Positions 1 through 62,834 of a DNA stretch of 64,000 bases are shown in pieces. The DNA comes from Candidatus Woesearchaeota archaeon (GTDB taxonomy: Archaea > Nanobdellota > Nanobdellia > Woesearchaeales > UBA9642): positions 248,001 to 312,000 of the forward strand of contig QZIT01000006.1 of assembly GCA_003599145.1 (NCBI GenBank), read 5' to 3'. The position numbers and the translations under genes were made by a program. Each line of letters begins with the position of its first letter. Position 1 is the stretch's first letter. The notes beneath the pieces are model-generated. The model made no database searches and was not told where the DNA came from. It worked only from the letters and a program-made list of their open reading frames with translations.

Positions 1-1
1 A

Positions 2-1639: not shown

Positions 1640-2061
1640 GCGATGAACATCATAATGAACCAAGAGAAGTAGGATATAATAAAACTCACAAAGATACGTT
1701 CAAAGAATGGACAAGCAAGGATTCAAACTCTATTTTTTCAGGTTTGACTCAAGCGGACTTATTTTTCTTTGCTATGGCATTAGGACATCATAGAAAAAAA
1801 CATAGTGAAGTAAAAAATAAAGCTAATGACGTTCCTGTTAGTGCATTAAACGAAGCACAAAAATGGGGAGTTCTCGCTACAGCAATAGACGCTAAAGAAG
1901 ATTTGTTAGTATTAAAAGATGAGAAAAAAATCTACCTATCTGCAGAAGAGTATGCTGAAGAAGGAATAAAGATATTAAAATCACATATTGAAAAACAAGG
2001 ATTGAATTATCCTAAATATTTAGAAGCGGAATTAAGAGAGTTAATAGGTGATGAATCATAG
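1636..2061 (+). CDS. Small protein, resembles Dnd-associated small proteins (dnd_assoc_4-like from memory)
   Basis: ATGA overlap with the upstream ATPase gene; FSGLTQADLFFFAMALGHHRKK pattern. Confidence 0.5.
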   Translation: MSDEHHNEPREVGYNKTHKDTFKEWTSKDSNSIFSGLTQADLFFFAMALGHHRKKHSEVKNKANDVPVSALNEAQKWGVLATAIDAKEDLLVLKDEKKIYLSAEEYAEEGIKILKSHIEKQGLNYPKYLEAELRELIGDES

Positions 2062-3207: not shown

Positions 3208-3208
3208 T

Positions 3209-3577
3209 TTAATTACCTTTCAATAAATTTGTCAAATCCGAAATATCATTTATTCTGCTGTATATGGCCATTATTCCATTGTTAAGATGTATTTTAAACT
3301 GCTCAATAAAATTCTTTTCAGGATCTAATCCATCTTGCAAACACCTTTCTTTGACAAGGGCAACAAAGTATGCATCATATTCTCCTGTTAAAGTATATCT
3401 ATTAAATTCTTGTCCCTCTTCATCTGGTTTGACTATGTTAGTAATTCTTTGTGTATTAAGAGAATAGCACAAAGCAATCCTTGCTAAAATATTTGGAGTT
3501 AATCCTGTTCTTCCTTTAAGAACTTTCAATCTTGCTGTTGCATCTGTACTTATTTTTATTCTATTGAATTTTACCAT
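3209..3577 (-). CDS. dndE: DNA sulfur modification protein DndE
   Basis: MVKFNRIKISTDATARLKVLKGRTGLTPNILARIALCYSL is DndE-like; start placed at the second Met (3577), just after the dndD stop. Confidence 0.88.
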   Translation of the reverse strand: MVKFNRIKISTDATARLKVLKGRTGLTPNILARIALCYSLNTQRITNIVKPDEEGQEFNRYTLTGEYDAYFVALVKERCLQDGLDPEKNFIEQFKIHLNNGIMAIYSRINDISDLTNLLKGN

Positions 3578-3578
3578 T

Positions 3579-5582
3579 TTAATCCCAAAAATACCCATTT
3601 GTTACTTGTGTTTTGTTATTATCATATTTTAAATTGTAAGTTCTAACAATCTTTCTTTTAAGCATATCCATATATTTTTTATCTACTTCTGTGTCTGTGG
3701 AAAGTATGATAAGTTGATGACTCGCTTCTGGGAAGAAATTTCTGATTAGGTTATCCCTGTGGTCAATATCGAGTCTACCGAGAGGTGTGTCTATTATAAA
3801 TGGAAGAGGTCTATGTGATATTTTTGTAAGTGTCCACAATACGGCGATAGCATAAATCTGTTTCTCTCCTGCTGATAATTGTGACTTTAATATTACTTTA
3901 CCTCCTTTTTTGAATAAAGTGACTGAATAATCCTTTGGGTCGACTTTTATTTGCTCAAATGCTCCTTTTTTTCTTGCAATTTGATCATAACATTGTAAGA
4001 ATACATCATTAAACTCAGCAATTTTTTCTTGTTCTAGTTTGTCGTGGTATTCTTCAAGAACATTTTGCACACGAGTTACCATTTTAATTCTATTTGAAAG
4101 ATTATCCGTATTTTGCATCTCATCTATTAATTTTCTTAATTCCCTAACAGTTTTTTCATAATTAAATTGTGCTTGTCTTATATCTTCGTCTAATTTCTGC
4201 ATATTTTGCTGCATCGTTCCTAAAGACTGATGAAGTTCATTACTTTTACCAATAAAATTACTTAGAGCAGAATCTGCAGGTGCAAAACTAATTTCTTTTG
4301 TAATTTTATGTAAATTTGTTGTTAATACTTCATGTTTTTTTGTTAATTCAAATAACTTAATCGGTGTATCTTCTATTGCTCGATCTATTAAGGAGAGTAA
4401 CACTGTCTGTTCATTATTTGAAAGATTATGGACTAAAACATTATTTGAAATTTTAGGCATCATAATTTCATTAATCGTAGAAATTATTTTATTAGATACT
4501 GCTTTTGAATCTTTCACATCAATTTCTGTTTTTAACCAAAACTCTTTCTTGTCTAATTTGGATTTAAGTTGTGATAATTTCTCTTCTAAATTTTTCTGAA
4601 GTATTACTTCATTTTTCAGGGAATCTTCTTTCATCAATGTTTTTTTCAATTTACCGCTAAGTTGTTGCGCAAAAACAAATGGTAGAAGGTCTCCACACAT
4701 TTCTCTAAGTTGATTTTCAATTAGATTAATCTCTGTTTCAATCCTGGTTTTTCTACTAATTAAATCATCCCTTTTTTCAGCAAAAATTCCGCCCTCTTTT
4801 TTAATTAATAATTCTTGTCTTTCAATATCTGCATAAGTTTTATCTATTTTTGATTGTAATTGTGCTTTTTCTTGATTCTTTGCATCTAATTCATGCTCTA
4901 GTTTATTTTCTTCTGATTGAATCATATCAATTCTATCTTGTAAATCTGTTGCTCCACTCTGCTTCAATTGTTTTATTGAATATATCTCTAAATCAGATTT
5001 TAATTTTTCAACAAGATCAACACCTAATAATGATTTAAACGAGTCCGATAATTGTCTGTTATCAACACCATCTTCTGCTAATGCTTGAATTTTTTCTCCA
5101 TCAAAAAAGAATAATTGCGATAATCCTGGAGGAATTAAATCATTAATAAAATCTTGCCATTGTTCAGAGTCTATCTCTGCTAAGTCATTTCCATTTTTTT
5201 TAACTTCAAACTTTTCTGTAACAAGTTCATTTACAGCAGTCCATCGTCTAAATACATTATACGTATCAACTTCCCCAAGATGTGCATGTTGAAATTCTAA
5301 TCCTACTGCTGCAGAATTTGGTTGAACCGATAATGTAGAATTATGGTGTATTTTTTCAAATAAATATTTTTCATAAGCATTTTTTACGGTTCTTTTTTCT
5401 AATACCATCGGCCCGTATAAACATAATCTAATAGCTTCAAAAATGGTTGTTTTACCATTGCCATTTTTACCACCAATTAATGTTATTTTTTTATCTCCGT
5501 GCGGCAAGAAATCTAATTCTTGTTTCCCATAAAATAATCCAAAATTTTCGATATATAATTTATTTATTATCATTACACACAC
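3579..5582 (-). CDS. dndD: DNA sulfur modification protein DndD (SMC-like ATPase)
   Basis: IGGKNGNGKTTIFEAIRLCLYGP Walker A; LIPPGLSQLFFFDGEKIQAL; LSAGEKQIYAIAVLWTL signature; PFIIDTPLGRLD Walker B. Confidence 0.93.
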   Translation of the reverse strand: MCVMIINKLYIENFGLFYGKQELDFLPHGDKKITLIGGKNGNGKTTIFEAIRLCLYGPMVLEKRTVKNAYEKYLFEKIHHNSTLSVQPNSAAVGLEFQHAHLGEVDTYNVFRRWTAVNELVTEKFEVKKNGNDLAEIDSEQWQDFINDLIPPGLSQLFFFDGEKIQALAEDGVDNRQLSDSFKSLLGVDLVEKLKSDLEIYSIKQLKQSGATDLQDRIDMIQSEENKLEHELDAKNQEKAQLQSKIDKTYADIERQELLIKKEGGIFAEKRDDLISRKTRIETEINLIENQLREMCGDLLPFVFAQQLSGKLKKTLMKEDSLKNEVILQKNLEEKLSQLKSKLDKKEFWLKTEIDVKDSKAVSNKIISTINEIMMPKISNNVLVHNLSNNEQTVLLSLIDRAIEDTPIKLFELTKKHEVLTTNLHKITKEISFAPADSALSNFIGKSNELHQSLGTMQQNMQKLDEDIRQAQFNYEKTVRELRKLIDEMQNTDNLSNRIKMVTRVQNVLEEYHDKLEQEKIAEFNDVFLQCYDQIARKKGAFEQIKVDPKDYSVTLFKKGGKVILKSQLSAGEKQIYAIAVLWTLTKISHRPLPFIIDTPLGRLDIDHRDNLIRNFFPEASHQLIILSTDTEVDKKYMDMLKRKIVRTYNLKYDNNKTQVTNGYFWD

Positions 5583-5585
5583 TCT

Positions 5586-6983
5586 TTAATCATTCGTTGT
5601 ATTCTGAGGGCTCATTTCTTCTTCAGATCTCCACTCTTCTTTGATGATTTTATCTATCCTAACATATGCACTAGCACGTCTAGTCATTCCTTGAATCTCA
5701 CGTTCTACGCCTAATAATTTCATAACTAAATCAGTAGGAATATCATGCTTAGTACAAATTTGATTTAATAATTTGCTTTCTCCATTTGTAAAAACTCCAA
5801 CATCGTCTTGGACCCAATCTAAATCTTGATCCATAATTTGCCTGTACAGTTTTGGGATGGAATCTTCCCAATCTCCTCTTTCTGTCAACCACAATTTTCG
5901 GATATGATGAATTTCTTCATCAGTAATTATTTTGAAATCGGTCCCAGGTTTAACTTTCTCAATTTCTTTTTGAGCTTCTAAAAGTTTTTTGAATAATTCT
6001 TTACAGAAAGACAGTTTATAAGGTCCTCTCGAAATTTCTCCTGTTCCATCGCTCTTAAATCTCACCTGCCCATTTCTTCCCTTATATTCTCTAAACTGTG
6101 ATTTTCTTTCAGGATCAGTTGTCTCAAACAAATAATCTCTAATCTCCATCAAAGGCTTCATCCAGGTTTCTCCATTTTCTATTAAATTCTGCATAGAAGT
6201 GTCTTTATTTACTACAGTACATGTCCAACATCCAAACCTACTTCCACCACATGAAGGAGTCGTTTTATCAACAACCAACGGGCATTCTCCTGCATTTTTG
6301 GAAGTATACAAATTTAATAATTCTCTATTATTAGAGCCCCAAGGGGATTTTTTTTGTAAAAGATATGTCCATACATCATCAACTGAAAAATTCTCAATAG
6401 GAGTATATACAAATGCTTGTGGGAATCTTGAATGTCTTGATAATATTGTGTCTTTTATTTTATACAAACTCATTACTTGAGCTCTTGTTGTACTCTCTTC
6501 TTTTCTTACACCTAAGATTAAAATCACTTCTCCGAATTCACTCACTTTGTCAAGAATAAAAGTATCTGCAGGTCTTATTTTTAATCTGTCAGTACACCAC
6601 CTAAACATTCTTTGTGGAGCGGGATAACCTTTTCCTAATAACAAAGTCCAGAAAGTATCTTCTACTTTAGGATAAACATGTTGTGCTATTATTGGCAGAT
6701 TTTGTTCTTTTGCAGCCTGATTTATTTTTATATGAATTCCAGACATGTATTTTAATAATATTGGAGATTCAACCATAGTATTTGATGAAATTACATATAT
6801 TTTTTTAGTTCTCTGCTTTTCAGGTAGTTCAGATAATGCATACCAGACTAATTGAACACAGGTTGTTGAATCTTTTCCCCCACTAAATCCAATAACCCAC
6901 GGCCTATTATCGCTAAGATATAATTTTTGAATCTCCAAATATATTTCTTTTAGTGGTTTTTTGTTAAAAATTGAATCTGCCAT
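5586..6983 (-). CDS. dndC: DNA phosphorothioation protein DndC (PAPS reductase-like)
   Basis: FSGGKDSTTCVQLVWYAL PP-loop; CGGSRFGCWTCTVV Cys-rich motif. Confidence 0.95.
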   Translation of the reverse strand: MADSIFNKKPLKEIYLEIQKLYLSDNRPWVIGFSGGKDSTTCVQLVWYALSELPEKQRTKKIYVISSNTMVESPILLKYMSGIHIKINQAAKEQNLPIIAQHVYPKVEDTFWTLLLGKGYPAPQRMFRWCTDRLKIRPADTFILDKVSEFGEVILILGVRKEESTTRAQVMSLYKIKDTILSRHSRFPQAFVYTPIENFSVDDVWTYLLQKKSPWGSNNRELLNLYTSKNAGECPLVVDKTTPSCGGSRFGCWTCTVVNKDTSMQNLIENGETWMKPLMEIRDYLFETTDPERKSQFREYKGRNGQVRFKSDGTGEISRGPYKLSFCKELFKKLLEAQKEIEKVKPGTDFKIITDEEIHHIRKLWLTERGDWEDSIPKLYRQIMDQDLDWVQDDVGVFTNGESKLLNQICTKHDIPTDLVMKLLGVEREIQGMTRRASAYVRIDKIIKEEWRSEEEMSPQNTTND

Positions 6984-6995
6984 TTTTTCACATCA

Positions 6996-8111
6996 TTATT
7001 TTCTTAAAAATCTTTTTTCTAAATTTTCTTCATTTTGATTTAAGCTCAACCCTAATTTACTTTTTAGTAGATTACTAGTGAGCACAATATTAGCACTAAC
7101 CTTTGTTAATCTGCCACCAATCATAGATCTTCCTTCCCATTCACGATTATCCTTTGACCAATCTATCTCATTTAATTGTTTAAGTTTAGATTTCCATTTC
7201 TGAGGATATCTTTTCATTAAATCATTACCTAAGATTCCGAGAGCATGTAATAAGATTCCATGTACATGAACAAAATTCTTTCTTGCATCATATGGTTGTA
7301 AAGTATTATTTACAATTTCTTGCCATTCAGAAATATTGTTATAAACTTCATTCCAATATGTCATTATCAATTTTTCTTCATCATTAGTTAATTTTGGTTT
7401 CTTTTCGGTCTTACCGAGTAAAGCTTTTGAAGCAGAATATATGCTATTTAATGTGAAAACTTTATGGGCTCTGTTAGATATTGAAGTTCTTTCTAACTCA
7501 GTAATTTCATTAAAGATTGGTACTTCAGAAAGCATACCTAATATTGAATGTGAAAATATATCTCTATGATCGTATAAAATATTTAATGATTTTGTAGGTC
7601 TAATTGCATGTTTATTTAGATCAGAAAACATCTGTTGACTATGTTTTAATCCTGAATCTAAATAAAAGACTACAGAAATTGTTTCTGCCGATAAATCAGG
7701 TCTTTGTTTCAAAGCTTCTTCAATAGCTTTTCTTCTATGTTGACCATCATTAATTAAAAATTTAGCATTTACTGAAATGGATAATTTCCCTATTTTAGAA
7801 GAAGGACCTTCAGATTCTAATGGTTCAAATTTTACATCACCATCTATTGATGCTGTAATTGATGAGAACACATAATCTCTTCTATTATTTACTAGATAAG
7901 AAACCATCTCTGGAATTCTTGCTTTATTAAGAACTCTTTGAGCTCTTAATTGTGGAGATATCCCTGGTTCATTAAAGACAAAGATAGTTGGAATTAATTT
8001 CAAAGGACACATAATTGTATAATATTCACGTCCTGCTTGAATGCCTCTTAACGCACTAAACTCGAAATAATCAGATGATGACATCCTATTTGTTTTAGGT
8101 GTGTTAGCCAT
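6996..8111 (-). CDS. dndB: DndB (DGQHR-domain protein)
   Basis: INDGQHRRKAIEEAL motif, SDLNKHAIRPTKSLNILYD; adjacent to dndC. Start placed at Met 8111 (MANTPKTNRM) rather than the ORF-track 8204. Confidence 0.9.
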   Translation of the reverse strand: MANTPKTNRMSSSDYFEFSALRGIQAGREYYTIMCPLKLIPTIFVFNEPGISPQLRAQRVLNKARIPEMVSYLVNNRRDYVFSSITASIDGDVKFEPLESEGPSSKIGKLSISVNAKFLINDGQHRRKAIEEALKQRPDLSAETISVVFYLDSGLKHSQQMFSDLNKHAIRPTKSLNILYDHRDIFSHSILGMLSEVPIFNEITELERTSISNRAHKVFTLNSIYSASKALLGKTEKKPKLTNDEEKLIMTYWNEVYNNISEWQEIVNNTLQPYDARKNFVHVHGILLHALGILGNDLMKRYPQKWKSKLKQLNEIDWSKDNREWEGRSMIGGRLTKVSANIVLTSNLLKSKLGLSLNQNEENLEKRFLRK

Positions 8112-8251
8112 GATTATTTGAAAAACCCTTGATTTTATAAATGTTTCTAAATTAACGTACATTTGACAGAAATTAACTTCTTTTTTAATAAAATTGACTT
8201 CCATAAACTTCCATGTAAAATAATATTAAGAAAAAAATAGAACAATATGGT

Positions 8252-8497
8252 ATGAATTTACAATTAGAACAAGAAGTTTCACAACTCCGAAAAGAGATTG
8301 CAGAGATAAAATCAGAATTAACGCTTGCTCTCTCCAGAATAAGCGATAAATTAGCAACACATTCTGAAAATTATCGAGAGCTAAGAGTTAAAATTGATCA
8401 AATAAACAAAATGATTTCTCTTAAAGAAGAACAAGACTCTGCCGAGGTGCAATATGAATCTAATAATAGAAATACTGCTATTAATCCTGCTGATTAA
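8252..8497 (+). CDS. Small coiled-coil protein
   Basis: 81-aa ORF with heptad-like E/L/K pattern, divergent from dndB. Confidence 0.5.
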   Translation: MNLQLEQEVSQLRKEIAEIKSELTLALSRISDKLATHSENYRELRVKIDQINKMISLKEEQDSAEVQYESNNRNTAINPAD

Positions 8498-8630
8498 GAC
8501 ACTAAATGTCAATGCAGTGCTCATCTGGAGCTTGTATGTAGTAAGCAAGATCTTAGGTCAACTTTACATCATGTGGGAAGAAGGAGTAAGACAAACATTT
8601 CTTCTACACTTCAAAAAGAAATCAAAATGA
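8454..8630 (+). CDS. Small membrane protein (58 aa)
   Basis: Out-of-frame overlap with the previous ORF; my translation: MNLIIEILLLILLIKTLNVNAVLIWSLYVVSKILGQLYIMWEEGVRQTFLLHFKKKSK; strongly hydrophobic; stops 6 bp before the methyltransferase. Confidence 0.5.
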   Translation: MNLIIEILLLILLIKTLNVNAVLIWSLYVVSKILGQLYIMWEEGVRQTFLLHFKKKSK

Positions 8631-8636
8631 TACACG

Positions 8637-9581
8637 ATGAAATATTTCAGCATGTTCAGTGGCATAGGGGGATTTGAGCTAGGAATACAAAGATCATTTC
8701 CTAATGCCGAATGTGTTGGATACTCAGAGATAGACAAATATGCGATTGAGACTTATGAAAAACACTTCCCAAATCACAAAAACTTTGGAAATGCAAAAAC
8801 AATCAAACCAGGAGAACTTCCAAACTTTGATATGCTCTGTGCAGGATTTCCTTGCCAAGCATTCAGCATTGCTGGAAAAAGGAAAGGTTTCAGAGATACA
8901 AGAGGCACATTGTTTTTTGAAATTGCAAGAATCATTAAAACTAAAAGACCTAAAATTGTACTCCTTGAAAATGTCAAAGGCTTACTCAATCACAACAAAG
9001 GGAAAACTTATTCTGTCATCATACAATCGCTGGATGAATTGGGGTATAACACTCAATGGATGGTACTTAACAGCAAAGACTTTGGAGTTCCACAAAACAG
9101 AGAGAGAATCTTCATTATCGGATCTCTTAGAAATAAACGTAGACCCGAAATACTTTCTATCAGAGAAAACAATGGAGAATCTAATTCGAAGAGTTCGAAG
9201 AGGTTGGAACTGCTCTATGATGGAGACTATCAAAGCAAAAGAATCTATTCTGTGGAGGGAATTAGCCCGACAATACCCACAGGCAAATCAGGAGGAAATC
9301 ACATTCCGTTTATTGCAACGCATTGGCAAAGAGCAAGCACAACAGGCAAAGGAGGAACAGGGATGCTAACAAGTGATAAATTCTCATTTACACTTGACAG
9401 AAATCCACACTTTGTAAATGGAATTAGAAGATTAACTCCTATAGAATGTGAGAGATTACAAGGTTTTCCTGAAGGATGGACAGAAGGTGTTTCTGATGTA
9501 CAAAGATACAGTCAATGTGGAAATGCAGTAACAGTAAATGTAGTGGAATCAGTAATAAAAACCATCAAGGGAGAATTATGA
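8637..9581 (+). CDS. DNA (cytosine-5-)-methyltransferase
   Basis: FSGIGGFELGI, GFPCQAFS (catalytic PC), ENVKGLL, QNRERIF, RRLTPIECERLQGFP, YSQCGNAVTVNVV. Confidence 0.95.
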   Translation: MKYFSMFSGIGGFELGIQRSFPNAECVGYSEIDKYAIETYEKHFPNHKNFGNAKTIKPGELPNFDMLCAGFPCQAFSIAGKRKGFRDTRGTLFFEIARIIKTKRPKIVLLENVKGLLNHNKGKTYSVIIQSLDELGYNTQWMVLNSKDFGVPQNRERIFIIGSLRNKRRPEILSIRENNGESNSKSSKRLELLYDGDYQSKRIYSVEGISPTIPTGKSGGNHIPFIATHWQRASTTGKGGTGMLTSDKFSFTLDRNPHFVNGIRRLTPIECERLQGFPEGWTEGVSDVQRYSQCGNAVTVNVVESVIKTIKGEL

Positions 9582-9787
9582 AACTATCGTCACAAGGAGG
9601 CATAATAGTAACTCTGAAAGAGCTAATTGACATGCACAGAGTGGGCTTCAAATACAAAATAAACCACAATACAAAGGATTTGATATCCTTTCGTAGCTTC
9701 CTAGACAATGAGATTAAAAGACGTAAGGAGAGTGCTTTAAATGACCAAAAAAACATATCAGAAAATAACAAACAAATACAAGATTAA
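9578..9787 (+). CDS. Small hypothetical protein
   Basis: In-frame Met at 9578 overlapping the MTase stop; 69 aa. Confidence 0.4.
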   Translation: MKLSSQGGIIVTLKELIDMHRVGFKYKINHNTKDLISFRSFLDNEIKRRKESALNDQKNISENNKQIQD

Positions 9788-9815
9788 AATTTCTCTTTGG
9801 GAGAGAATAAAGAAA

Positions 9816-9998
9816 TTATTCGGATTTTGATCCTTCATTCGTTCCATCTTGAAAACCATCGTCATAAATCTTATTAATAACAACAGATAAATCGTCATCA
9901 GTGAGACATATCTTGATGGCTTTTAGGTATTTCTTTGTGTATTTATCGATCATTGTTTCCATCTTTCTAGCTGAATAAAATGGCTGCTTCATCCCCAT
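9816..9998 (-). CDS. Small hypothetical protein
   Basis: 60-aa ORF in compact minus-strand run. Confidence 0.4.
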   Translation of the reverse strand: MGMKQPFYSARKMETMIDKYTKKYLKAIKICLTDDDLSVVINKIYDDGFQDGTNEGSKSE

Positions 9999-10344
9999 AT
10001 AACTCTACTGATTTGTTACTCCAATATTTTAGCCACTTTAATCTATCCTTATTAATTTCATTAACAAAATCAGTTTCCTTCAGTTTATTTATACGTTTTA
10101 GAAATGGTTTAATCAGAGCCAAATCCAAATCATTTGTATCAGGATGTTTTCTCATCTCCAAATATATTGCTTTCAAATCTTTGTTTTTTGTAAAAAACTT
10201 CCAGAATGAAAAATTATTTCCACTCCTGTAAGACTCTGTTGGCCAGTTTGTATGCGTTGGATCGCAAATATTTTTTTTAGCATCAGGGCATTGTTCGACA
10301 GAAGAATCTCCTGTCTTTTTGCCTATTCTTACATCTAATGTCAT
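9967..10344 (-). CDS. Hypothetical protein
   Basis: 125-aa ORF, tight packing with neighbours. Confidence 0.5.
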   Translation of the reverse strand: MTLDVRIGKKTGDSSVEQCPDAKKNICDPTHTNWPTESYRSGNNFSFWKFFTKNKDLKAIYLEMRKHPDTNDLDLALIKPFLKRINKLKETDFVNEINKDRLKWLKYWSNKSVELYGDEAAILFS

Positions 10345-10345
10345 C

Positions 10346-10555
10346 TTAGTTTACCTCCTTGAGCCATTCTTTCTCGAGAGCAATAAAATTCTCTGGAAAG
10401 ATTTTCTTTTTCTGTTTTGCTTGAGCTACTTGAAAATCGAAGATCGCTTCATCAGTGCAGCATTCAGAACATATTTTTGTTTTATTATCTCTTCTACTTG
10501 TACCTGGATGACAATCTACTGTCTTCTTGCATTTTGGACATTTCCATTCGTTCAT
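10346..10555 (-). CDS. Small zinc-ribbon-like protein
   Basis: CPKCKKTVDC...CSEC cysteine pattern. Confidence 0.6.
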   Translation of the reverse strand: MNEWKCPKCKKTVDCHPGTSRRDNKTKICSECCTDEAIFDFQVAQAKQKKKIFPENFIALEKEWLKEVN

Positions 10556-10556
10556 A

Positions 10557-11438
10557 TTAATCTCTCTCCACTCGTCTTTTTTGATTGAACAAGTTATTTT
10601 GAAGCATCATGATTGCTTCTTCTTCTGCAAACTTGTGTGTTGCAGGAGTGCATGCAGCTGCTTGTGGTGTAGCTATAACTTTTACTAAGTTTGTAAGCTC
10701 AGAGATCTGATTTTTCAATTCAGTAATTTCCACTGAATGTTTTTCTTCAATTGTATTGAAGACTGCATTCACGATATCTCGTTTTGCCTGTAAACTGGAT
10801 TTAATATATCTCTCTGTGCTTCTAAGATTTCTGTGTCTTCCGCAGATTTGTGCAGCAAAAACACCTCTCTTATCGCAAATCTTTTGTAAATAAAAGTGTC
10901 TTAATGTGTGAAAACTCAAGACTGATAATTGATGGCCTGAATTGCTTTTGCCGTATTTATGATCGAGACCAGCTTTCTTTCTTGCTCGAATTGTATGTGT
11001 CCTTATTGTTCCAGGACTCATATGGTTTTCTCCAGCAGAAGTATATTTTCCTGAGATCGTAGGTCTGCCACATCTTGATCTTCGCCCATATCTTTGTCTC
11101 CAAAAAATATAGTTATCAGCGAGTGCAATTTGTGATTTGTAAGTTAGAATATGATCTTTGAAGCGTTCAATCATGAAATCAGGCACAATAATTTTCTCGA
11201 ATTTTTCTTTGTTTTTTTGTTCAGGCAGAAGTAACGTCTTTTCAAAGAAGTCGATGTGATCAACTTTTATTTTGCAAACCTCAACACTTCTTAATCCGAG
11301 TTCACTTGCACAATAATACACATTTTCCCAAAATTTAATGTACTCATCATCATATCTTTTCTCAATTTCTCTGACGGAATCCATGAACATATTGAATTGT
11401 GCCTCAGTAATTGATTTTGCTTTTGCGTCTTGAGCCAT
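10557..11438 (-). CDS. Tyrosine recombinase/integrase
   Basis: ELGLRSVEVCKI (Arg I), FHTLRHFYLQ (HxxR), CGRHRNLRSTERYI (Tyr); C-terminal coiled coil. Confidence 0.9.
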   Translation of the reverse strand: MAQDAKAKSITEAQFNMFMDSVREIEKRYDDEYIKFWENVYYCASELGLRSVEVCKIKVDHIDFFEKTLLLPEQKNKEKFEKIIVPDFMIERFKDHILTYKSQIALADNYIFWRQRYGRRSRCGRPTISGKYTSAGENHMSPGTIRTHTIRARKKAGLDHKYGKSNSGHQLSVLSFHTLRHFYLQKICDKRGVFAAQICGRHRNLRSTERYIKSSLQAKRDIVNAVFNTIEEKHSVEITELKNQISELTNLVKVIATPQAAACTPATHKFAEEEAIMMLQNNLFNQKRRVERD

Positions 11439-11443
11439 CTAAT

Positions 11444-11788
11444 TCACCCCCATAATTCTTTCAGAAGTTCTCTTGAGTATTGTGCTACTTCTGACGCTGG
11501 CACTTTTGTTCCTGTTAAGATCTGTGCAGCTGCTTTTAGGCAAACTTGGAGATGAATATCATCCACAACATTATCTCTCATGTTCGGTGTTGCTTCTGTT
11601 TCTTTTTCTCTTTCTATCTTTATGATATTTCTGTACTTGCCATTTAATTTGTATTCAATAGAAGCTGTATCTCCTTTTTTTACAGGACAAACGCCATATC
11701 CACCATACCATTCATCCTTGATCTTAACACCATACTTGTTGCTTTCTCTCTGATTAACAGCTGAGATGATTCCTATTTCATTTGGCAT
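11444..11788 (-). CDS. Hypothetical protein
   Basis: 114-aa ORF within minus-strand operon-like run. Confidence 0.5.
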   Translation of the reverse strand: MPNEIGIISAVNQRESNKYGVKIKDEWYGGYGVCPVKKGDTASIEYKLNGKYRNIIKIEREKETEATPNMRDNVVDDIHLQVCLKAAAQILTGTKVPASEVAQYSRELLKELWG

Positions 11789-12098
11789 TTTTCTCAGCCT
11801 CCTTAGAACTCCATTCAGTTAATCCGAATGTACCTTTTGAGGTTTTTACAAATCGTTTCTGCGTATCAGTTATCAGTCTTGAAAAAATACTATTTTGTGG
11901 TGTTGTTCCTGTGGATTTGCTTCTTTTCAAAACTTCTGCAGTTATCTCTTTGTAATGCATTGGCTTGCCATTATCTTTTAGAACTTGGTATGCTACTTCT
12001 CTGTGAGGCAAGTCAATTTGTTCTGCTGGTTGTTGTTCTTCTTTCTTCGGCTCTGAACCGACATTTTTATATCTACCTTTATGTTTATCTCCCTTCAT
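11778..12098 (-). CDS. HARE-HTH-like domain protein
   Basis: HREVAYQVLKDNGKPMHYKEITAEVLKRSKSTGTTPQNSIFSRLITDTQKRFVKTSKGTFGLTEW. Confidence 0.7.
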   Translation of the reverse strand: MKGDKHKGRYKNVGSEPKKEEQQPAEQIDLPHREVAYQVLKDNGKPMHYKEITAEVLKRSKSTGTTPQNSIFSRLITDTQKRFVKTSKGTFGLTEWSSKEAEKNAK

Positions 12099-12126
12099 GG
12101 GTATTACCTCCTATGGTTTTACTCAT

Positions 12127-12163
12127 CGGGATTGAGGGTATCTTAGCGGATTACTCAATCCCG
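12127..12163. repeat. Perfect 10-bp inverted repeat, 17-nt loop
   Basis: CGGGATTGAG (12127-12136) / CTCAATCCCG (12154-12163). Confidence 0.85.
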
Positions 12164-12173
12164 TTATGATCAT

Positions 12174-12329
12174 TTATTCTGTTTTACATTTCTCTTTTAA
12201 AATCACATAAACTTCTTTGCCAATGTACTTTTTGGTGTATGGAATCACTGCTCCATTTCCAGACTTTACAACGGTCTTGATTTCTATGTTTCCAGGTTCT
12301 AAAACCAAATCCTTTGTTTTTATTTTCAT
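12174..12329 (-). CDS. DUF2080-like small transposon-associated protein (51 aa)
   Basis: My translation: MKIKTKDLVLEPGNIEIKTVVKSGNGAVIPYTKKYIGKEVYVILKEKCKTE; absent from ORF track because <60 aa. Confidence 0.6.
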   Translation of the reverse strand: MKIKTKDLVLEPGNIEIKTVVKSGNGAVIPYTKKYIGKEVYVILKEKCKTE

Positions 12330-12435
12330 TGTATCTCTCCTCGATAAGTCTATACTTTGTGAGACTATCAGGATATATAAATCTTGTCCTCAAAATGCCT
12401 ATTTTCTGCTAAATTTCTGCATTTGTCAGATATTG

Positions 12436-12483
12436 TCAAGTCCGTTTTCCCCATATCTCCGACTGTGGTTTTGTTGGACTTGA
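12436..12483. repeat. 8-bp inverted repeat upstream of integrase 2
   Basis: TCAAGTCC (12436-12443) / GGACTTGA (12476-12483). Confidence 0.7.
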
Positions 12484-12551
12484 AAAGGGGACACGGGGAT
12501 TATAAAGAACAATGGACACGAATATTCTAATGAGGGGGTTTACTTTACACC

Positions 12552-13514
12552 ATGAAAGTCAACAATGGGAGGATGCAATTTGGGCATAGGAATGAAGCCC
12601 GGGAAAAGACCATAACTGATGAACAGTTGAATAGATTTCTTTCTGCAATCCCATTCATTGAAGAAGATAAATATGTGTTCTTTTGGGAAAATGTTTACTG
12701 CTGTGCAGCAATGCTTGGTCTTAGAAGCGCTGAAACATGCAGGATAAGAATAGAAGACATTGACTTTATGGATAAGACACTCACTCTCCCTGAACAAAAG
12801 AATAAGGAACGATTTGAGAAAATCATAATCCCTGATGAAATGATGAGACGAATAAAAGATCACATCATGAAATACAAGTCAGAAATAGTTCTCAATGGAA
12901 GTCATGGCAAAGACATCAATCAAAATGATTTAAGAGGAGAATATTACATTTTCTGGAGAATGCGTGAGATGAAAACAGGCCACAAAGAAAAGCACCTGGC
13001 AGAACAAACCATCAGAAAACATCTCGAAGAAACCAGAAAGAAAGCTGGACTTGACCACAAATATGGTATGACAAAAGATGGCCATACTCTTGCTGTTTTA
13101 AGCTATCATACTCTTAGGCATTATTATCTGCAGAAGATCTGCGACAGGAGAGGCGTGTTTGCAGCTCAGATAACAGGAAGGCACAAGAACTTGAGAAGCA
13201 CAGAGAGATATCTGACAACAAGTCTCGTGGCCAAGAGAGATATCGTTAATGAAGTATTCAACACTATCCAAGAGCCAGAAGGAGCTCAAATGAAGGCTCT
13301 TAAAGACGAAATCTCTGAACTTAAGGCATTGGTCAAGCAGTCCATAATAATCAGTAATGGAAGCCCAGATAACATCAAAAATAACAGTAAGATCGCAATA
13401 GAAGAAGCCGAGAAAAGAATGCAGAACATGGCCTTGTATGAGAGTCGTCAGATGAGAAAAGGCGGCCCTGTACAGCAGGAAAGTGCTGTTGTTGTCAGCT
13501 CTATGGAGAGGTAG
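12552..13514 (+). CDS. Tyrosine recombinase/integrase, paralog of 10557-11438
   Basis: MLGLRSAETCRI, YHTLRHYYLQKICDRRGVFAAQITGRHKNLRSTERY; long near-identical blocks with the other integrase. Confidence 0.92.
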   Translation: MKVNNGRMQFGHRNEAREKTITDEQLNRFLSAIPFIEEDKYVFFWENVYCCAAMLGLRSAETCRIRIEDIDFMDKTLTLPEQKNKERFEKIIIPDEMMRRIKDHIMKYKSEIVLNGSHGKDINQNDLRGEYYIFWRMREMKTGHKEKHLAEQTIRKHLEETRKKAGLDHKYGMTKDGHTLAVLSYHTLRHYYLQKICDRRGVFAAQITGRHKNLRSTERYLTTSLVAKRDIVNEVFNTIQEPEGAQMKALKDEISELKALVKQSIIISNGSPDNIKNNSKIAIEEAEKRMQNMALYESRQMRKGGPVQQESAVVVSSMER

Positions 13515-54918: not shown

Positions 54919-56472
54919 TTAAAGATCCAAGCTTTCCGTTATCAATGCAGGCTTGAACTCCTGCAAATCATCATAGGTTTGCCCTGTTCCCAAATAGAGA
55001 ATAGGTTTTTTGGTTACATAGCTTACGGAAATGGCTGCTCCTCCTTTTTCGTCTACATCAGCCTTTGCTAGAATGATGGCATCTATGCCGACTAATTCAT
55101 TAAAAATCTTTGCCTGTTCAACGCAATCATTGCCGGTAATGCTTTCTCCTACAAATATTTTTAAATCAGGCTTATTCACGCGAATTACTTTTTCCAGCTC
55201 GTCCATTAAATTAGTATTGCTGTGCAGTCTTCCTGCAGTGTCTATTAAAACAATATCAATGCCCTTTGCTTTTGCATGGCTGATGGCATCAAAGGCGACT
55301 GCAGCAGGGTCGCTGTCATAGTCATGCTTTATCATTTTTACCTGCAATTTTTCTGCATGTTCCTGCAATTGCTGGATTGCAGCTGCTCTAAAGGTATCGC
55401 TTGCAGCGATGACAACAGAAAAATTATTTTTCTTGAACAGATGCGCCAGTTTTGCCAAGGTGGTTGTTTTGCCGCTTCCATTGACGCCAATCATGGCAAT
55501 AACATAAGGCTTTTTCTGCCTTGCTCTCTTGACGAGGTCGAAAGTTTCAACATCAAATAATTCTTCGATGGATTTTTTCAGCGTCTTTTTAATCAGCTCG
55601 TCAATATGTTTTCTTGGAATTTTATCTTTGGTTAATTCCCTTTTCAAATCTTCTTTTATTTTTTCTATCACTTCAACAGCGACGTTGTTTTCCAGCATGG
55701 CAACTTCAAGATCCCAGAATATTTCATCGAATTTTTCACCGCTCAACTGCACCTTGCTGATGGTGTCTTTCAAAACGTCAAAGAATGATTTTTTCTCTTT
55801 AGGTTCTTCTGGTATCTTTTTTTCTTCTGTCTCTTCTTCTTTGATTTCTTTTAGTAATTCTTCTTTTTTCTCCTCTTCTTTTTCAGAAATCTTTTCTAAT
55901 GCCTCTTCTTCGAGTTCTTCATCTATAATCTCCTCTTCAACTTCTTTTTCAGCTTTTTCTTTTTTTCCAAAAATGCTCTTGAAGAAGGATGGCTTTTTTT
56001 CTTCTCGTTTATATTCTCCTCTTGTTGCTTCTTTCTTTTCTGTTCTATCTAATTTTTTTTCTTCTTTTTTCTCGTCTATTATCGTCTCTTTTTTTCTTTC
56101 TTTCCTTTCTTCTGGTTTTTTTATTTCTATGTTTTCTTTTCTTTCAGGTTCTGCTTTTCTTTTTTCTTCGCCTTCTCGCTTTATTCTCACTTCTTCTTTT
56201 CGTTCCGCTGCTTTTTCAAATTCTTTTTTTTCCAGCTCTGCTATCCTTTTCTTTTCATCTTTTTTTGCTTCTTCTGCTTTTGGTCTTTCTGCAGGTATTT
56301 TTTTGTCGTCTTTGCGCTTTTCTTCAGCTTTTTTCTTAGGCAGTTCCTTTTCAGCCTCTTCAATGACTTCTAATTCCTGCTCTTCTGCAGCTTCCTCTAC
56401 GGCAGTCTCTTCAACATCTTTCTTAAACTTGCTTAAGGCCTTGTCAAGCGTTTTCTTTAAAAATCCGAACAT
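54919..56472 (-). CDS. ftsY: Signal recognition particle receptor FtsY
   Basis: GVNGSGKTTTLAKLAHLFK; DTFRAAAIQQL; DTAGRLHSN; long charged N-terminus. Confidence 0.95.
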   Translation of the reverse strand: MFGFLKKTLDKALSKFKKDVEETAVEEAAEEQELEVIEEAEKELPKKKAEEKRKDDKKIPAERPKAEEAKKDEKKRIAELEKKEFEKAAERKEEVRIKREGEEKRKAEPERKENIEIKKPEERKERKKETIIDEKKEEKKLDRTEKKEATRGEYKREEKKPSFFKSIFGKKEKAEKEVEEEIIDEELEEEALEKISEKEEEKKEELLKEIKEEETEEKKIPEEPKEKKSFFDVLKDTISKVQLSGEKFDEIFWDLEVAMLENNVAVEVIEKIKEDLKRELTKDKIPRKHIDELIKKTLKKSIEELFDVETFDLVKRARQKKPYVIAMIGVNGSGKTTTLAKLAHLFKKNNFSVVIAASDTFRAAAIQQLQEHAEKLQVKMIKHDYDSDPAAVAFDAISHAKAKGIDIVLIDTAGRLHSNTNLMDELEKVIRVNKPDLKIFVGESITGNDCVEQAKIFNELVGIDAIILAKADVDEKGGAAISVSYVTKKPILYLGTGQTYDDLQEFKPALITESLDL

Positions 56473-58118: not shown

Positions 58119-58673
58119 TCAAATCCAATCCTCCTTGAGTTTCGTTGCCTTGCTGACGACGCCGCTGACCAGATGAATTGCCATGCTGATGACGAGGATT
58201 GCAATGATGACTTTCCATGAAGGTATAAATGCAATAGCGCTTAAAAGCAGTGCGCCAACAACAAAATCCCATTGATCAAAGGGAAACCAGCTTTTGCCCG
58301 GATTTATCCGCACTCTCCTTTTGAAAAAGCTTTTGACTAAGTCTCCTAAAATTGCTCCTGCTCCTAATAAAAATCCAAAATAGACAATGCCCCAGGAATA
58401 ATCAATAATGCTTATGCTTTTGAAAAAAGAAACATCCTTCAGCAAGATTTGCACGATAAACAGGACAATGCCTGCAAGTATGCCAAAAATAACCCCGCCA
58501 ATGGTTTTATGGTCTCCAAAAATTCTTCCTTTGTTGACTTTTTGATAATTATCGACAGGTGTTTTTAGCAGTCCGTGTTTTGTTGTAAACACAGGAGTCA
58601 TGTTTGCAAAGTATGCAGGAACCATGAAATAGATAGCCTGTAAAAAAAGCAAGAGTATTTCATTCATGCTCAT
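58119..58673 (-). CDS. carS: CDP-archaeol synthase
   Basis: MVPAYFANMTPVF; GRIFGDHKTIGG; GAILGDLVKSFFKRR. Confidence 0.88.
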   Translation of the reverse strand: MSMNEILLLFLQAIYFMVPAYFANMTPVFTTKHGLLKTPVDNYQKVNKGRIFGDHKTIGGVIFGILAGIVLFIVQILLKDVSFFKSISIIDYSWGIVYFGFLLGAGAILGDLVKSFFKRRVRINPGKSWFPFDQWDFVVGALLLSAIAFIPSWKVIIAILVISMAIHLVSGVVSKATKLKEDWI

Positions 58674-59034
58674 TACTTTCTCTGTTTCTTTTTAAATGTT
58701 TTGCGTATGCAGCCCTTAACTGTTCAGAGGTTGCATGAAACGTTGTTAACAAATAATCTGAGTATGCCCTTAGCCCTTCTGCAGTTTTAAGCGTGTGCTG
58801 TTCAGGTAAATCTCTTAATCTCTGAGAGACATCGGCAAGGGCCTTTCCATAATACGGATGGTCTGTTTCGTTGTTAAGCATCAGAGAAATGGCAACAATT
58901 TCTTCAAGTGCAGCTTTTTTGATTGCAGACTGCTGCAGCAGGGGCAGAAAAGATGCTCTTTCTGAAAGAGCGTAGAGAAAAAAAGTCTTTTTTACGGCAG
59001 CTTGCAATTGCGGAGCAGTATAAACGATAGCCAT
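58660..59034 (-). CDS. Hypothetical protein
   Basis: Overlaps carS start by 14 bp. Confidence 0.55.
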   Translation of the reverse strand: MAIVYTAPQLQAAVKKTFFLYALSERASFLPLLQQSAIKKAALEEIVAISLMLNNETDHPYYGKALADVSQRLRDLPEQHTLKTAEGLRAYSDYLLTTFHATSEQLRAAYAKHLKRNRESNEHE

Positions 59035-59083
59035 GGGGTTGAAAAGAACAAGCTATATAAATTTATTACTATTCCGCAATGAC

Positions 59084-60853
59084 ATGGGTGATTTGAGCGG
59101 TTTTGTAGAGGATTTACGGCAGAGAGTTGACCTTGCTGAGCACGTTAAAGCCATTGTCAAACTCGGAAGGAATAATATGGGCAAATGCCCTTTTCACGAG
59201 GAAAAAACACCGTCTTTTCATGTAACATCTGACTTTTTCCATTGTTTTGGATGCGGGAAATCAGGAGATGTCATAGGGTTTTATCGAGAGTACCATGGAC
59301 TCACGTTTATTGAGGCTGTAACTGCAATAGCAGAAAAAGAGGGAATTTCTGTTCCGACATTCGGCAGGGCAGAGCCAAAAATAAGAACCTATGAAGTTTT
59401 GGAAGCTGCATTAAGCTATTTTCATAACAGCCTGATGATGGACAGAGGAATCGAAGTTTATGAATTTTTACTTGAGAAAAGAAAAATATCAAGGGAAACC
59501 ATCCAGCGATGGAAATTAGGTTACGCACCAGACAGCTGGGATGAATTGCATACTCATTTGCAGCAGAAAGGATTTACTGCCGAGGAGCTTGAACGGCAAA
59601 GCCTCATCACGCAAAGAAAAGAAGCTTCCGGATATTATAATTTTTTTAGAAACAGAATCATGATCCCACTAGTAAATCATGCAGGAAAGCTTATCGGATT
59701 TGCAGGCAGAGCTATTGATGCTGACCAGATAAAATACCTTAATTCAAGAGAGCAGACATCAAGAGGAAAAAGCCTGTACAATAAGAAAACACTTTTATTT
59801 GGATTGTACCCTGGACTTTCTGCAGTGCGAGAGCAAAAATCAATTATGGTTACCGAAGGATATTTTAATGTTATTTCTAGCCATCAATCAGGAATAGAGA
59901 ACGTTGTTGCGGTAGGCGGAACTGCATTTACTGAACAACAGGCGCGGTTGATAAAAAGGCTTACTTCTGATGTGGTTTTTGTTATGGATGGGGACAGTGC
60001 AGGCATTGCTGCTGCAAAAAAAGCAGTTAAAGTTGCCTATGGTTCTGGATTAACGCCTCAAGTTGCCTTATTGCCTGAGGGAACAGATTTGGATGACATT
60101 TGTAAATTAGGCGATAAAGAGAGTGTTATGCAAACCATTCACCCTGAAGATATCCTTCAGTTTCATCTAAGGACAACGCCTTCTCAAACATCAGATGAAA
60201 AAACAAGAATCTTGGACGAAATGATAGAATATCTTTCATTGGAAAAGGATGTTGCGAGGAAATTTATTTGGATCAGCGACATTGCAACTGCATTACACAT
60301 TCCTGTTCAAATTGTTGAACAAAAATGCGTTGCATATCATGCAGAACAGCTTCCTGAGCAACAGCAAGTCTCTTTGAGGAAAATAGCTGCGCTGTATATT
60401 GCAAACCTGTTTCATCTTCCTTCTGCGCTGCGGAGGCATTACTATGAACTTGTTCCAGAGAGCGATGCGTTTTCTGACGAGCTGAAAGCGCTTTATGGTA
60501 TTTTGCAGGAAGGAGACAAGGAGAATCATGAGCAATTAGCTATGCCTATGGTGCCTATGCAGAACGGCCAGCATGACTTTATTGCAAGCGATAAAGCAGA
60601 GCAGGTTATTGCTTATTTGAAGGATGCATACCAAAAAAGAAAGATTGCGCACATTCCTTTGCAAATAGTCCGTATGGCAATGGAGCCGTTGCCTGTAAAA
60701 GTCGACATCTGTGCAAACATCCTGCACGAATATGCTATACAAGAAGAACAGGGAAAGTTGTTTATTGATTTGCTTGAAGCGCAGAAACTTCAGCATACCA
60801 ATAGACTAACGAAAATTCAAAGAAAACTAGAAGAATTGATGTATCATGGCTAA
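59084..60853 (+). CDS. dnaG: Bacterial-type DnaG primase with CHC2 zinc finger
   Basis: KCPFHEEKTPSFHVTSDFFHCFGCGKSGDVIGF; Toprim_N RNRIMIPLVNHAGKLIGFAGRAI; TOPRIM VTEGYFNVI...VMDGDSAG; start at Met 59084 after TATATAAATTTA. Confidence 0.9.
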   Translation: MGDLSGFVEDLRQRVDLAEHVKAIVKLGRNNMGKCPFHEEKTPSFHVTSDFFHCFGCGKSGDVIGFYREYHGLTFIEAVTAIAEKEGISVPTFGRAEPKIRTYEVLEAALSYFHNSLMMDRGIEVYEFLLEKRKISRETIQRWKLGYAPDSWDELHTHLQQKGFTAEELERQSLITQRKEASGYYNFFRNRIMIPLVNHAGKLIGFAGRAIDADQIKYLNSREQTSRGKSLYNKKTLLFGLYPGLSAVREQKSIMVTEGYFNVISSHQSGIENVVAVGGTAFTEQQARLIKRLTSDVVFVMDGDSAGIAAAKKAVKVAYGSGLTPQVALLPEGTDLDDICKLGDKESVMQTIHPEDILQFHLRTTPSQTSDEKTRILDEMIEYLSLEKDVARKFIWISDIATALHIPVQIVEQKCVAYHAEQLPEQQQVSLRKIAALYIANLFHLPSALRRHYYELVPESDAFSDELKALYGILQEGDKENHEQLAMPMVPMQNGQHDFIASDKAEQVIAYLKDAYQKRKIAHIPLQIVRMAMEPLPVKVDICANILHEYAIQEEQGKLFIDLLEAQKLQHTNRLTKIQRKLEELMYHG

Positions 60854-62834
60854 ACGAAAATTTTCTGATTTTGAAGCACTGAAAGCAAAAGTTAGGGCTA
60901 TCATTGAAAAAAAAAGATGGAAACCAGGAGAATTCTCTCCTTTTCAGATTGCAAAAATTGATCCCTATCTTGAACGCAGGCTCCGTGATGTAGGATACCA
61001 GTTAACGGGAACGTATAGCAGCGCTCTTGCTCTTAGATATATGGAGCTTGAACCAAAGAGAAGGTCTGATAAACTTTCCAATGAGGATATTCTTGCAATT
61101 ATGGGAGAAACGATTTCAAGAGAGACTGCAGTATCCATCTATGATACGTATTTGCAGGGCACTCAAGGGCTGAGTGCAAGGCAGTTATTTAAAAGCGGAA
61201 TTGCCAGTAAAGCATTAAAGGCTGCCTACAGCCCTAAGAGAAAAGAGTATAGAGAAGGCTTGTTTTATGAGCTTATTGACAGGCTTTATCCTGATGTGCA
61301 AGACCAATATGGCTTTCCTTTAAGCATAGCATTGCGCAGAGAACCCTTAAATAAAACCGTTTTGGCAGGTCAGTGCAAAAGACTTTATTTTTCCGGTTCA
61401 GATATCTCTATGAAAGCAGTTGCAGTAGACGTGAGTTCGTCGATTGCACATACCTTGATGACAGGGCGCCATGAACGAGTGTTGGTTAAAAAAAGTGACC
61501 GTGCCTTTTCTGATTATATGAAACATTTTTGCAAACTGCTTGGAACGTCTCTTGTTCCTGATGATCTCATCCCAAGAGGCACGAGAGGAGTGAAAAATCT
61601 TTCTCTTATAGCAGAGCGGGAAGTTGGATTGATGCTTCATATTCTTCAAAAATACGACCCTGAACTTCAGGAAGTGCCTTTTCCTTCTCTTGAACCTCCC
61701 TTGCAGAATATTACCAGTTATCAAGCGTTGATAGCACTGCCCGCGGAAGAAGGAAACACCTACGCTGACTTGAGGGTTGTTTCAGCGAACCTTGAACATT
61801 TGGTTGAGGTAAAAGCGTGCAGGCCGTGGAATGAGTTTGCAGTAGTTTCAAGAATGAGAAACCAGCATACTGCAAAAACCTGGAGTGATGGCAAGTCTAT
61901 TGATAAAAAATTAGCAGTTGTTTTGGGGTCTCCGTTAAGTGCAGATAGCAAAGAAGCATTGGCAAAATATGGTTTTCATACTCTTGATGAGCCCTTGTTT
62001 GGAGAGCTCTATGTAGCGTCGCTTGATTTATTGCATAGGGAAAATCCAGAATTTTTCTCAGGAAAACCGTATACTGCAGATGACTTGAAAAAAATTCATC
62101 ATTGGCTTACTGATAAAGCGCACCTGCTTGCAAGACCATTGTATCAGACGCTGAAAAACTGGTCTGCAAAAATATTGAAGCAATGCATAGATGCTCTTGA
62201 ATTTCCCTTTTCCGTTATTGATGGCCATCCTTCTGTCTATCAGGCTCCTTTTTCATTGTTTGAGGATTTTTATGGCTCTTCAGCAGGAAAAGTATTTGCT
62301 CCTCATCACTTGTTGTTGGATATTGAGACATCAGGATCGAGCAGCAGGGAAGGCATGATAAGCATGATTGGTTTAGGCTATGCTGTTGGCGATACAATGA
62401 TTGTGCATATTCAGCATGCAAGGACTCCTTTTGAAGAAGAAGACTTGCTGAAAACATACGATGCGTTGGCAAGATCAGGACAATTTACTCATGTCGTTAC
62501 CTTTAACGGAAGAAGCTTTGACATTCCCTTTATCAATAAAAGATTGCTTGCGCATTTTATCAATCCAAACTATGCATTAGAGCATCTTGATTTGTATCCT
62601 TTGTTTAGACAATATGCAAAACAGCATCAATATCCCAATGCAAGATTGCAAACATTTGAGAAAGGCGTTTTGGGTGCTTCCCGTCATAAAGACCTTCCAA
62701 GCAAGGATGTTCCTGAAGTCTTAACGAATGTCATGTTTGGCGTTGGCGATCATAGGTTGCAGAAAGTGGTGTTGCATAACCAGTATGATATTGTAACGCT
62801 GGGTTTGATGCTGGATTATTTTAAAAATTCCTAA
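60846..62834 (+). CDS. YprB-like RNase H-fold exonuclease-domain protein
   Basis: HHLLLDIETSGSSSREGMISMIGLGY; VVTFNGRSFDIPFI; NQYDIVTLGLML; 8-bp overlap with dnaG. Confidence 0.8.
   Translation: MAKRKFSDFEALKAKVRAIIEKKRWKPGEFSPFQIAKIDPYLERRLRDVGYQLTGTYSSALALRYMELEPKRRSDKLSNEDILAIMGETISRETAVSIYDTYLQGTQGLSARQLFKSGIASKALKAAYSPKRKEYREGLFYELIDRLYPDVQDQYGFPLSIALRREPLNKTVLAGQCKRLYFSGSDISMKAVAVDVSSSIAHTLMTGRHERVLVKKSDRAFSDYMKHFCKLLGTSLVPDDLIPRGTRGVKNLSLIAEREVGLMLHILQKYDPELQEVPFPSLEPPLQNITSYQALIALPAEEGNTYADLRVVSANLEHLVEVKACRPWNEFAVVSRMRNQHTAKTWSDGKSIDKKLAVVLGSPLSADSKEALAKYGFHTLDEPLFGELYVASLDLLHRENPEFFSGKPYTADDLKKIHHWLTDKAHLLARPLYQTLKNWSAKILKQCIDALEFPFSVIDGHPSVYQAPFSLFEDFYGSSAGKVFAPHHLLLDIETSGSSSREGMISMIGLGYAVGDTMIVHIQHARTPFEEEDLLKTYDALARSGQFTHVVTFNGRSFDIPFINKRLLAHFINPNYALEHLDLYPLFRQYAKQHQYPNARLQTFEKGVLGASRHKDLPSKDVPEVLTNVMFGVGDHRLQKVVLHNQYDIVTLGLMLDYFKNS

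What the first reader, a model, noticed from the sequence alone, without database searches (positions are those of the whole stretch)
59084..62834. Bacterial-type DnaG primase overlapping a YprB-like nuclease gene in an archaeon
The DnaG ORF keeps the N-terminal CHC2 zinc finger (CPFH...CFGC), Toprim_N and TOPRIM (EGYFNVI, DGDSAG). Typical archaeal DnaG lacks CHC2 and acts with the exosome. It overlaps by 8 bp a 662-aa protein with an RNase H-fold exonuclease domain (DIETSG, FNGRSFDIPF, HNQYDIVTLG) and a ~450-aa uncharacterised N-terminal region. Neighbouring genes (CarS, prefoldin, aIF2 gamma) are archaeal, so transfer rather than contamination is likely. The pair may form a priming/primer-removal module.
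Basis: partly seen in the sequence, partly recalled or inferred. Interest (0 to 1): 0.75.

Follow-up and report, generated by a model that had tools for sequence, protein, structure and literature searches.

The report
Mobile archaeal primase–double-nuclease gene cassette
A tiny-genome archaeon carries a bacterial-style primase next to a protein with two different DNA-cutting domains. The same set of genes recurs as a travelling unit in about 2% of related genomes and is probably an undescribed DNA-defence or DNA-repair system.

Summary
A full CHC2–DNAG_N–TOPRIM DnaG (59084-60853) overlaps by 8 bp a 662-aa nuclease gene (60846-62834) in a Nanoarchaeota/DPANN genome that also keeps its own archaeal DnaG and PriS.

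The pair is real and conserved. The nuclease occurs in 11 of at most 537 related genomes (6 families), and all 11 have a DnaG-like gene beside it.

The 'uncharacterised' N-terminal region contains a PD-(D/E)XK nuclease domain (residues ~245-400). The C-terminus is a MrfB/YprB-like DEDDh exonuclease. Both active sites are conserved in 11/11 at ~20% identity.

The primase site is not: one copy lost the TOPRIM, one the zinc finger and acidic residues, one the zinc finger, one has an altered DxD.

DnaG and nuclease trees agree and reject the species pairings, so the cassette moves as a unit.

I read it as a mobile primase-associated double-nuclease cassette, more likely for DNA conflict (defence) or repair than for priming and primer removal. 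Anatomy, linkage and mobility are shown; function is inferred. No match was found in PADLOC, phage or plasmid collections, or papers searched.

The parts
58660..59034 (-). small (124 aa) protein, divergent from dnaG; third gene of the cassette, family without any Pfam/NCBIfam/PADLOC/PHROG match
   Evidence: leave-one-out HMM recovers the divergent gene in 7 of 7 subtype-I loci at E 3e-5 to 1e-16 among 431 ORFs
59053..59064 (+). TATA-like box (CTATATAAATTT) about 25-30 bases upstream of the dnaG ATG, inside the 49-bp divergent intergenic stretch; similar A+T boxes lie at most other loci
   Evidence: sequence; by eye, no statistical test
59084..60853 (+). bacterial-type DnaG primase (589 aa)
59102..59356 (+). 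CHC2 zinc finger of DnaG
   Evidence: PF01807 2.6e-25, residues 7-91
59417..59809 (+). DNAG_N catalytic-core domain
   Evidence: PF08275 1.2e-33, residues 112-242
59840..60100 (+). TOPRIM domain with EGY and DGD metal-binding residues
   Evidence: Toprim_2 1.2e-19; residue check
60846..62834 (+). double-nuclease protein (662 aa): helical N-terminus, PD-(D/E)XK domain, DEDDh exonuclease domain
60846..61565 (+). helix-rich N-terminal region (residues 1-240), probably DNA- or protein-binding; no family match
   Evidence: secondary structure of the AF2 model; no Pfam hit
61578..62045 (+). PD-(D/E)XK nuclease domain (residues ~245-400; D308, E321, K323)
   Evidence: residues conserved in 11/11; AF2 pLDDT 89; Foldseek top hits Can2, Cdn1, NucS, R2 endonuclease
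62298..62825 (+). DEDDh 3'-5' exonuclease domain, MrfB/YprB type (D492, E494, D559, H644, D648)
   Evidence: PF13482 1.7e-21; Foldseek best hit MrfB core 8un9; residues invariant in 11/11

Best explanation
This is a horizontally mobile cassette built from a DnaG-type primase, a two-active-site nuclease and a small divergently transcribed protein. Proposed mechanism: the DnaG-like protein recognises single-stranded or fork-like DNA through its zinc finger and C-terminal region and, where intact, lays down a short RNA. It recruits the nuclease, whose PD-(D/E)XK domain cuts the DNA and whose DEDDh domain digests it 3'-5'. The small protein probably regulates or bridges the complex. The likeliest purpose is attack on replicating foreign DNA (a defence-type conflict system); DNA repair is the close alternative. 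Shown: the anatomy, conservation of both nuclease sites, gene linkage, transfer as a unit, and dispensability of primase catalysis in some copies. Inferred: complex formation, substrate, order of steps and purpose.
For: The full-length nuclease is found in 11 genomes of 6 families, each with a DnaG-like gene adjacent. Leave-one-out HMMs recover it at E 8.5e-78 to 3e-152 when it is one ORF, and both halves at E 2.6e-46 to 8.4e-28 in the two loci where it is split. PD-(D/E)XK residues D308/E321/K323 (R in one copy) and all DEDDh residues are kept in 11/11 at ~20% identity. The PD-(D/E)XK fold is supported by AF2 (pLDDT 89) and Foldseek; the exonuclease by MrfB 8un9. Primase catalysis is not always kept: TOPRIM deleted in G536; zinc finger and acidic residues lost in G084; DxD changed in G003; no zinc finger in G340. 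Nuclease and DnaG trees both reject the species pairs G001+G003 (AU 0.004, 0.003) and G347+G233 (0.0003, 0.004), and both join G003 with G322. Housekeeping archaeal DnaG is 61-77% identical to the window's copy in the same carriers, against 20-41% for cassette DnaG. Position differs in every genome; the aIF2 gamma site of the window has no cassette in five family members. Two loci lie near defence-type genes: G001 near an integrase and type II R-M genes, G233 beside a SoFic-like gene.
Against: No carrier sits in a clear defence island; most neighbours are housekeeping genes. Most copies (7 of 11) keep an intact zinc finger and TOPRIM, so primer synthesis may matter. No helicase belongs to the cassette in most loci. 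The small gene is not demonstrably homologous in subtype II. Transfer could be mimicked by old duplication followed by losses, and G003-G322 is a join of long branches. The published catalytic relative MrfB is a repair enzyme.
Confidence: 0.45

Rival explanations
1. A mobile DNA-repair module: the DEDDh nuclease works like B. subtilis MrfB, the PD-(D/E)XK domain incises near a lesion, and DnaG re-primes the gap for repair synthesis.
For: Best structural match of the exonuclease is MrfB, which acts with helicase MrfA in mitomycin C repair (PMC11194089); its profile also matches Chloroflexota MrfB-like proteins. Most primases are intact. Loci lie among housekeeping genes.
Against: About 2% patchy presence, transfer as a unit, very fast divergence and catalytically broken primases are unusual for a repair pathway. 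No MrfA-type helicase belongs to the cassette.
Confidence: 0.28
2. A decayed replication module of an integrated virus or plasmid: primase plus nuclease left behind after other genes were lost.
For: DnaG-type primases are common in phages (276 phage records match). G084 carries a two-domain DnaB helicase directly downstream. Primase decay in some copies.
Against: The same two or three genes persist with both nuclease sites intact in 11 genomes, with no capsid, packaging or portal genes noticed nearby. The nuclease architecture is absent from phage and plasmid collections; only exonuclease-domain matches there.
Confidence: 0.15
3. One reading: a priming and primer-removal module for normal replication (lagging strand).
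For: DnaG is complete in 7 of 11 carriers; the nuclease is an RNase H-fold enzyme in an overlapping gene.
Against: Host PriS and archaeal DnaG remain; no DnaB partner in the own genome; about 98% of relatives do without it; TOPRIM deleted in G536; MrfB-type domains are DNA 3'-5' exonucleases, and a PD-(D/E)XK domain is not needed for primer removal.
Confidence: 0.1

Closest known systems
MrfAB (YprA-YprB) mitomycin C repair system of Bacillus subtilis
   Same: MrfB-like DEDDh exonuclease domain (Foldseek best hit 8un9; same D-E-D-H-D order and H/D spacing)
   Different: No MrfA helicase; the exonuclease is fused behind a PD-(D/E)XK domain and lacks MrfB's C-terminal TPR; the partner is a DnaG primase
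Bacterial replicative DnaG (TIGR01391)
   Same: CHC2, DNAG_N, TOPRIM; above the equivalog cut-off
   Different: In an archaeon beside a dedicated nuclease; no DnaB in the own genome; some family copies lack catalytic parts
Archaeal DnaG (exosome-associated)
   Same: TOPRIM domain
   Different: The host has a separate 431-aa archaeal DnaG without CHC2 on another contig
DRT / reverse-transcriptase-associated DnaG-like proteins (PADLOC RT_UG29, RTasDnaG-like)
   Same: DnaG-type primase core in a defence setting (PADLOC E 3e-41 and 1e-38)
   Different: No reverse transcriptase noticed here; the score reflects general DnaG homology
YprA-family defence systems (DISARM, Druantia, ARMADA, TALON; PMC12458937)
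   Same: Nucleases of MrfB, PD-(D/E)XK and RNase H types recur in them
   Different: Built on a YprA helicase, which is absent; no primase is mentioned in that paper
PD-(D/E)XK effectors Can2/Card1 and NucS
   Same: Fold of residues 245-400
   Different: No CARF domain was seen; different architecture and partner

Membership tests
Bacterial-type DnaG primase | CHC2 zinc finger + DNAG_N + TOPRIM above curated cut-off | tested here: met
   TIGR01391 342.4 bits vs 283.6; catalytic E and DxD present
Bacterial-type DnaG primase | Acts with a DnaB replicative helicase | tested here: not met
   No PF03796 match above cut-off in the own genome; DnaB lies next to the cassette only in G084
MrfB/YprB DEDDh exonuclease | RNase_H_2 fold with D-E-D-H-D | tested here: met
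   residues compared with PMC11194089
MrfB/YprB DEDDh exonuclease | Linked or fused to MrfA/YprA helicase, C-terminal TPR | tested here: not met
   The domain ends at the C-terminus of the 662-aa protein and no YprA-type helicase adjoins in the loci read
PD-(D/E)XK nuclease superfamily | alpha-beta-beta-beta-alpha-beta core with D-X(n)-E-X-K | tested here: met
PD-(D/E)XK nuclease superfamily | Nuclease activity | not testable with these tools
   Needs purified protein
Known anti-phage defence system | Match to a described multi-gene system | tested here: not met
   PADLOC: only generic DnaG matches to DRT models and weak DEDDh matches; no system
Virus or plasmid replication module | Same gene set in viruses or plasmids | tested here: inconclusive
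   Not in phages or plasmids; the viral-contig collection gave no answer
Archaeal exosome-type DnaG | Lacks CHC2; archaeal DnaG profile | tested here: not met
   CHC2 present; NF003108 only 27.9 bits vs cut-off 300

The most novel reading that the evidence does not exclude
A new class of mobile conflict system in which a captured bacterial primase is the recognition subunit that directs a double-active-site nuclease (endonuclease plus 3'-5' exonuclease) to replicating foreign DNA, with primase catalysis optional.
Probability: 0.35. Interest if true: 0.85.

Novelty: new variant of a known kind. Interest (0 to 1): 0.62.

Why it matters
DPANN archaea have few known defence systems; R-M and CRISPR-Cas are under-represented there (PMC12988326), and this cassette is invisible to PADLOC. 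It pairs a replication primase with a double nuclease and shows primases that keep their flanking domains but lose catalysis. That raises a testable question: what a primase does when it is not priming.

Tried and rejected
Chimeric assembly or contamination: rejected (smooth composition, internal contig position, independent assemblies). Chance adjacency: rejected (11 of 11). Viral contig scans failed four times. Chloroflexota (201 genomes) have only the exonuclease domain. A resemblance of the N-terminal helices to homing-endonuclease-associated repeats was considered but has no Pfam support and was dropped. The 280-aa gene upstream of dnaG in G536 and the small genes of G308, G340 and G233 are positional analogues only; homology is not shown. 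A single bacterial donor for all cassette DnaGs could not be shown: six form a clade (100/99) while G308, G340 and G233 are unresolved among bacterial DnaGs. The three papers returned for bacterial-type DnaG in archaea, and the other searches, describe no such cassette in the text read.

Full report
Observation. The window (G000:C2:248001-312000, a 421-kb contig of a 1.3-Mb genome, 97.5% complete) holds the two ORFs as described. The DnaG passes the NCBIfam dnaG cut-off and has all three catalytic-core domains. Composition shows no break at 59 kb.

Host replication genes. The genome also encodes a 431-aa archaeal DnaG without CHC2 and PriS above the Pfam cut-off. DnaB_C gives only sub-threshold hits. 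The bacterial-type DnaG is therefore additional, not a replacement.

The nuclease is two nucleases. An alignment of relatives at about 20% identity leaves few invariant residues, and most of those are catalytic: D308 and E321 with K323 (R in one copy), then D492, E494, D559, H644, D648. The second set has the DEDDh order and the His-to-Asp spacing of B. subtilis MrfB (PMC11194089), and Foldseek puts MrfB first. Modelled alone (pLDDT 89, pTM 0.86) it has PD-(D/E)XK topology, and the top PDB hits are PD-(D/E)XK nucleases (Can2, Cdn1, NucS, R2 endonuclease). No single Foldseek hit for it is below E 0.001 (best 1.3e-3, probability 1.00), so the motif, topology and hit list together carry the claim.

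A conserved cassette. The full-length nuclease occurs in 11 genomes of six families (f1, f8, f22, f26, f59, f74) out of at most 537 genomes searched in the phylum and order. Each has a DnaG-like gene adjacent. In subtype I (G000, G001, G003, G084, G322, G347, G476) the order is small gene (divergent), dnaG, nuclease. In G308, G340 and G536 the nuclease is convergent with dnaG, and in the last two it is split into two ORFs. G233 has the subtype-I order but groups with these in the nuclease tree. In the phylum sample, seven of the eight full-length CHC2-DnaGs with readable neighbours are next to this nuclease; the exception, G345, faces an unknown 566-aa protein. In the window and in G003 the two genes overlap by exactly 8 bp. 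Leave-one-out profiles recover the small gene in all seven subtype-I loci (E 3e-5 to 1.4e-16) but not in subtype II.

Primase catalysis is optional. The DnaG-like ORF of G536 keeps the zinc finger and the C-terminal region but has no DNAG_N/TOPRIM. G084 has lost the zinc finger and the TOPRIM acidic residues. G340 lacks the zinc finger. G003 has DAH in place of DxD. MAG errors could explain one such case, hardly all.

Mobility. Cassette trees for nuclease and DnaG agree with each other and both reject the pairs that the archaeal DnaG marker supports strongly: G001+G003 (AU 0.004 and 0.003) and G347+G233 (0.0003 and 0.004). Housekeeping DnaG is 61-77% identical between the window's genome and carriers, cassette DnaG 20-41%. 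In five family members aIF2 gamma is present without the cassette beside it; in G001 and G003 the cassette lies elsewhere. Long branches make G003+G322 less certain, and ancient paralogy with losses is not excluded.

Origin. Six cassette DnaGs form a clade (100/99) outside 26 sampled bacterial DnaGs; the others are unresolved. The exonuclease domain matches Chloroflexota MrfB-like proteins better (1e-38) than the stand-alone DPANN proteins (1e-17) (searches of different genomes), which fits a bacterial source of the parts. The combined architecture was not seen in the 201 Chloroflexota genomes, phages or plasmids.

Function. Always-intact nuclease sites, optional primase catalysis, patchy distribution and joint transfer fit a DNA-targeting conflict cassette best. 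Repair is close behind. Ordinary replication priming fits worst. Context is weak evidence: two loci lie near defence-type genes, the rest among housekeeping genes.

Known or new. PADLOC gives only generic DnaG scores and weak DEDDh scores. The papers found do not describe the combination; most subscription literature could not be searched. Parts are known kinds, the assembly appears undescribed, so I rate it a new variant and not categorically new until a function is shown.

Noticed in passing
L198 (G084:C4) 11089-12753: A two-domain DnaB helicase (PF00772 + PF03796) lies directly downstream of the cassette nuclease in an archaeon, in the copy whose primase is catalytically dead.
   Followed up: partly
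L203 (G345:C1) 6951-10398: Another bacterial-type DnaG (549 aa) in a DPANN genome, divergent from an unknown 566-aa protein without any family match; perhaps a sister system without this nuclease.
   Followed up: partly
L239 (G536:C31) 2010-3449: DnaG-derived protein with zinc finger and C-terminal region but no TOPRIM or DNAG_N.
   Followed up: yes
L044 15350-18947 and L199 1855-2778: Integrase with MutH-type restriction enzyme and C5 methylase (G001), and a SoFic-like Fic protein (G233), close to the cassette.
   Followed up: partly
window 54919-56472: FtsY with a charged N-terminal extension of about 230 residues.
   Followed up: no
window 1-9000: GC content about 0.31 against 0.37-0.41 beyond about 11 kb: possible foreign segment at the start of the window.
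   Followed up: no
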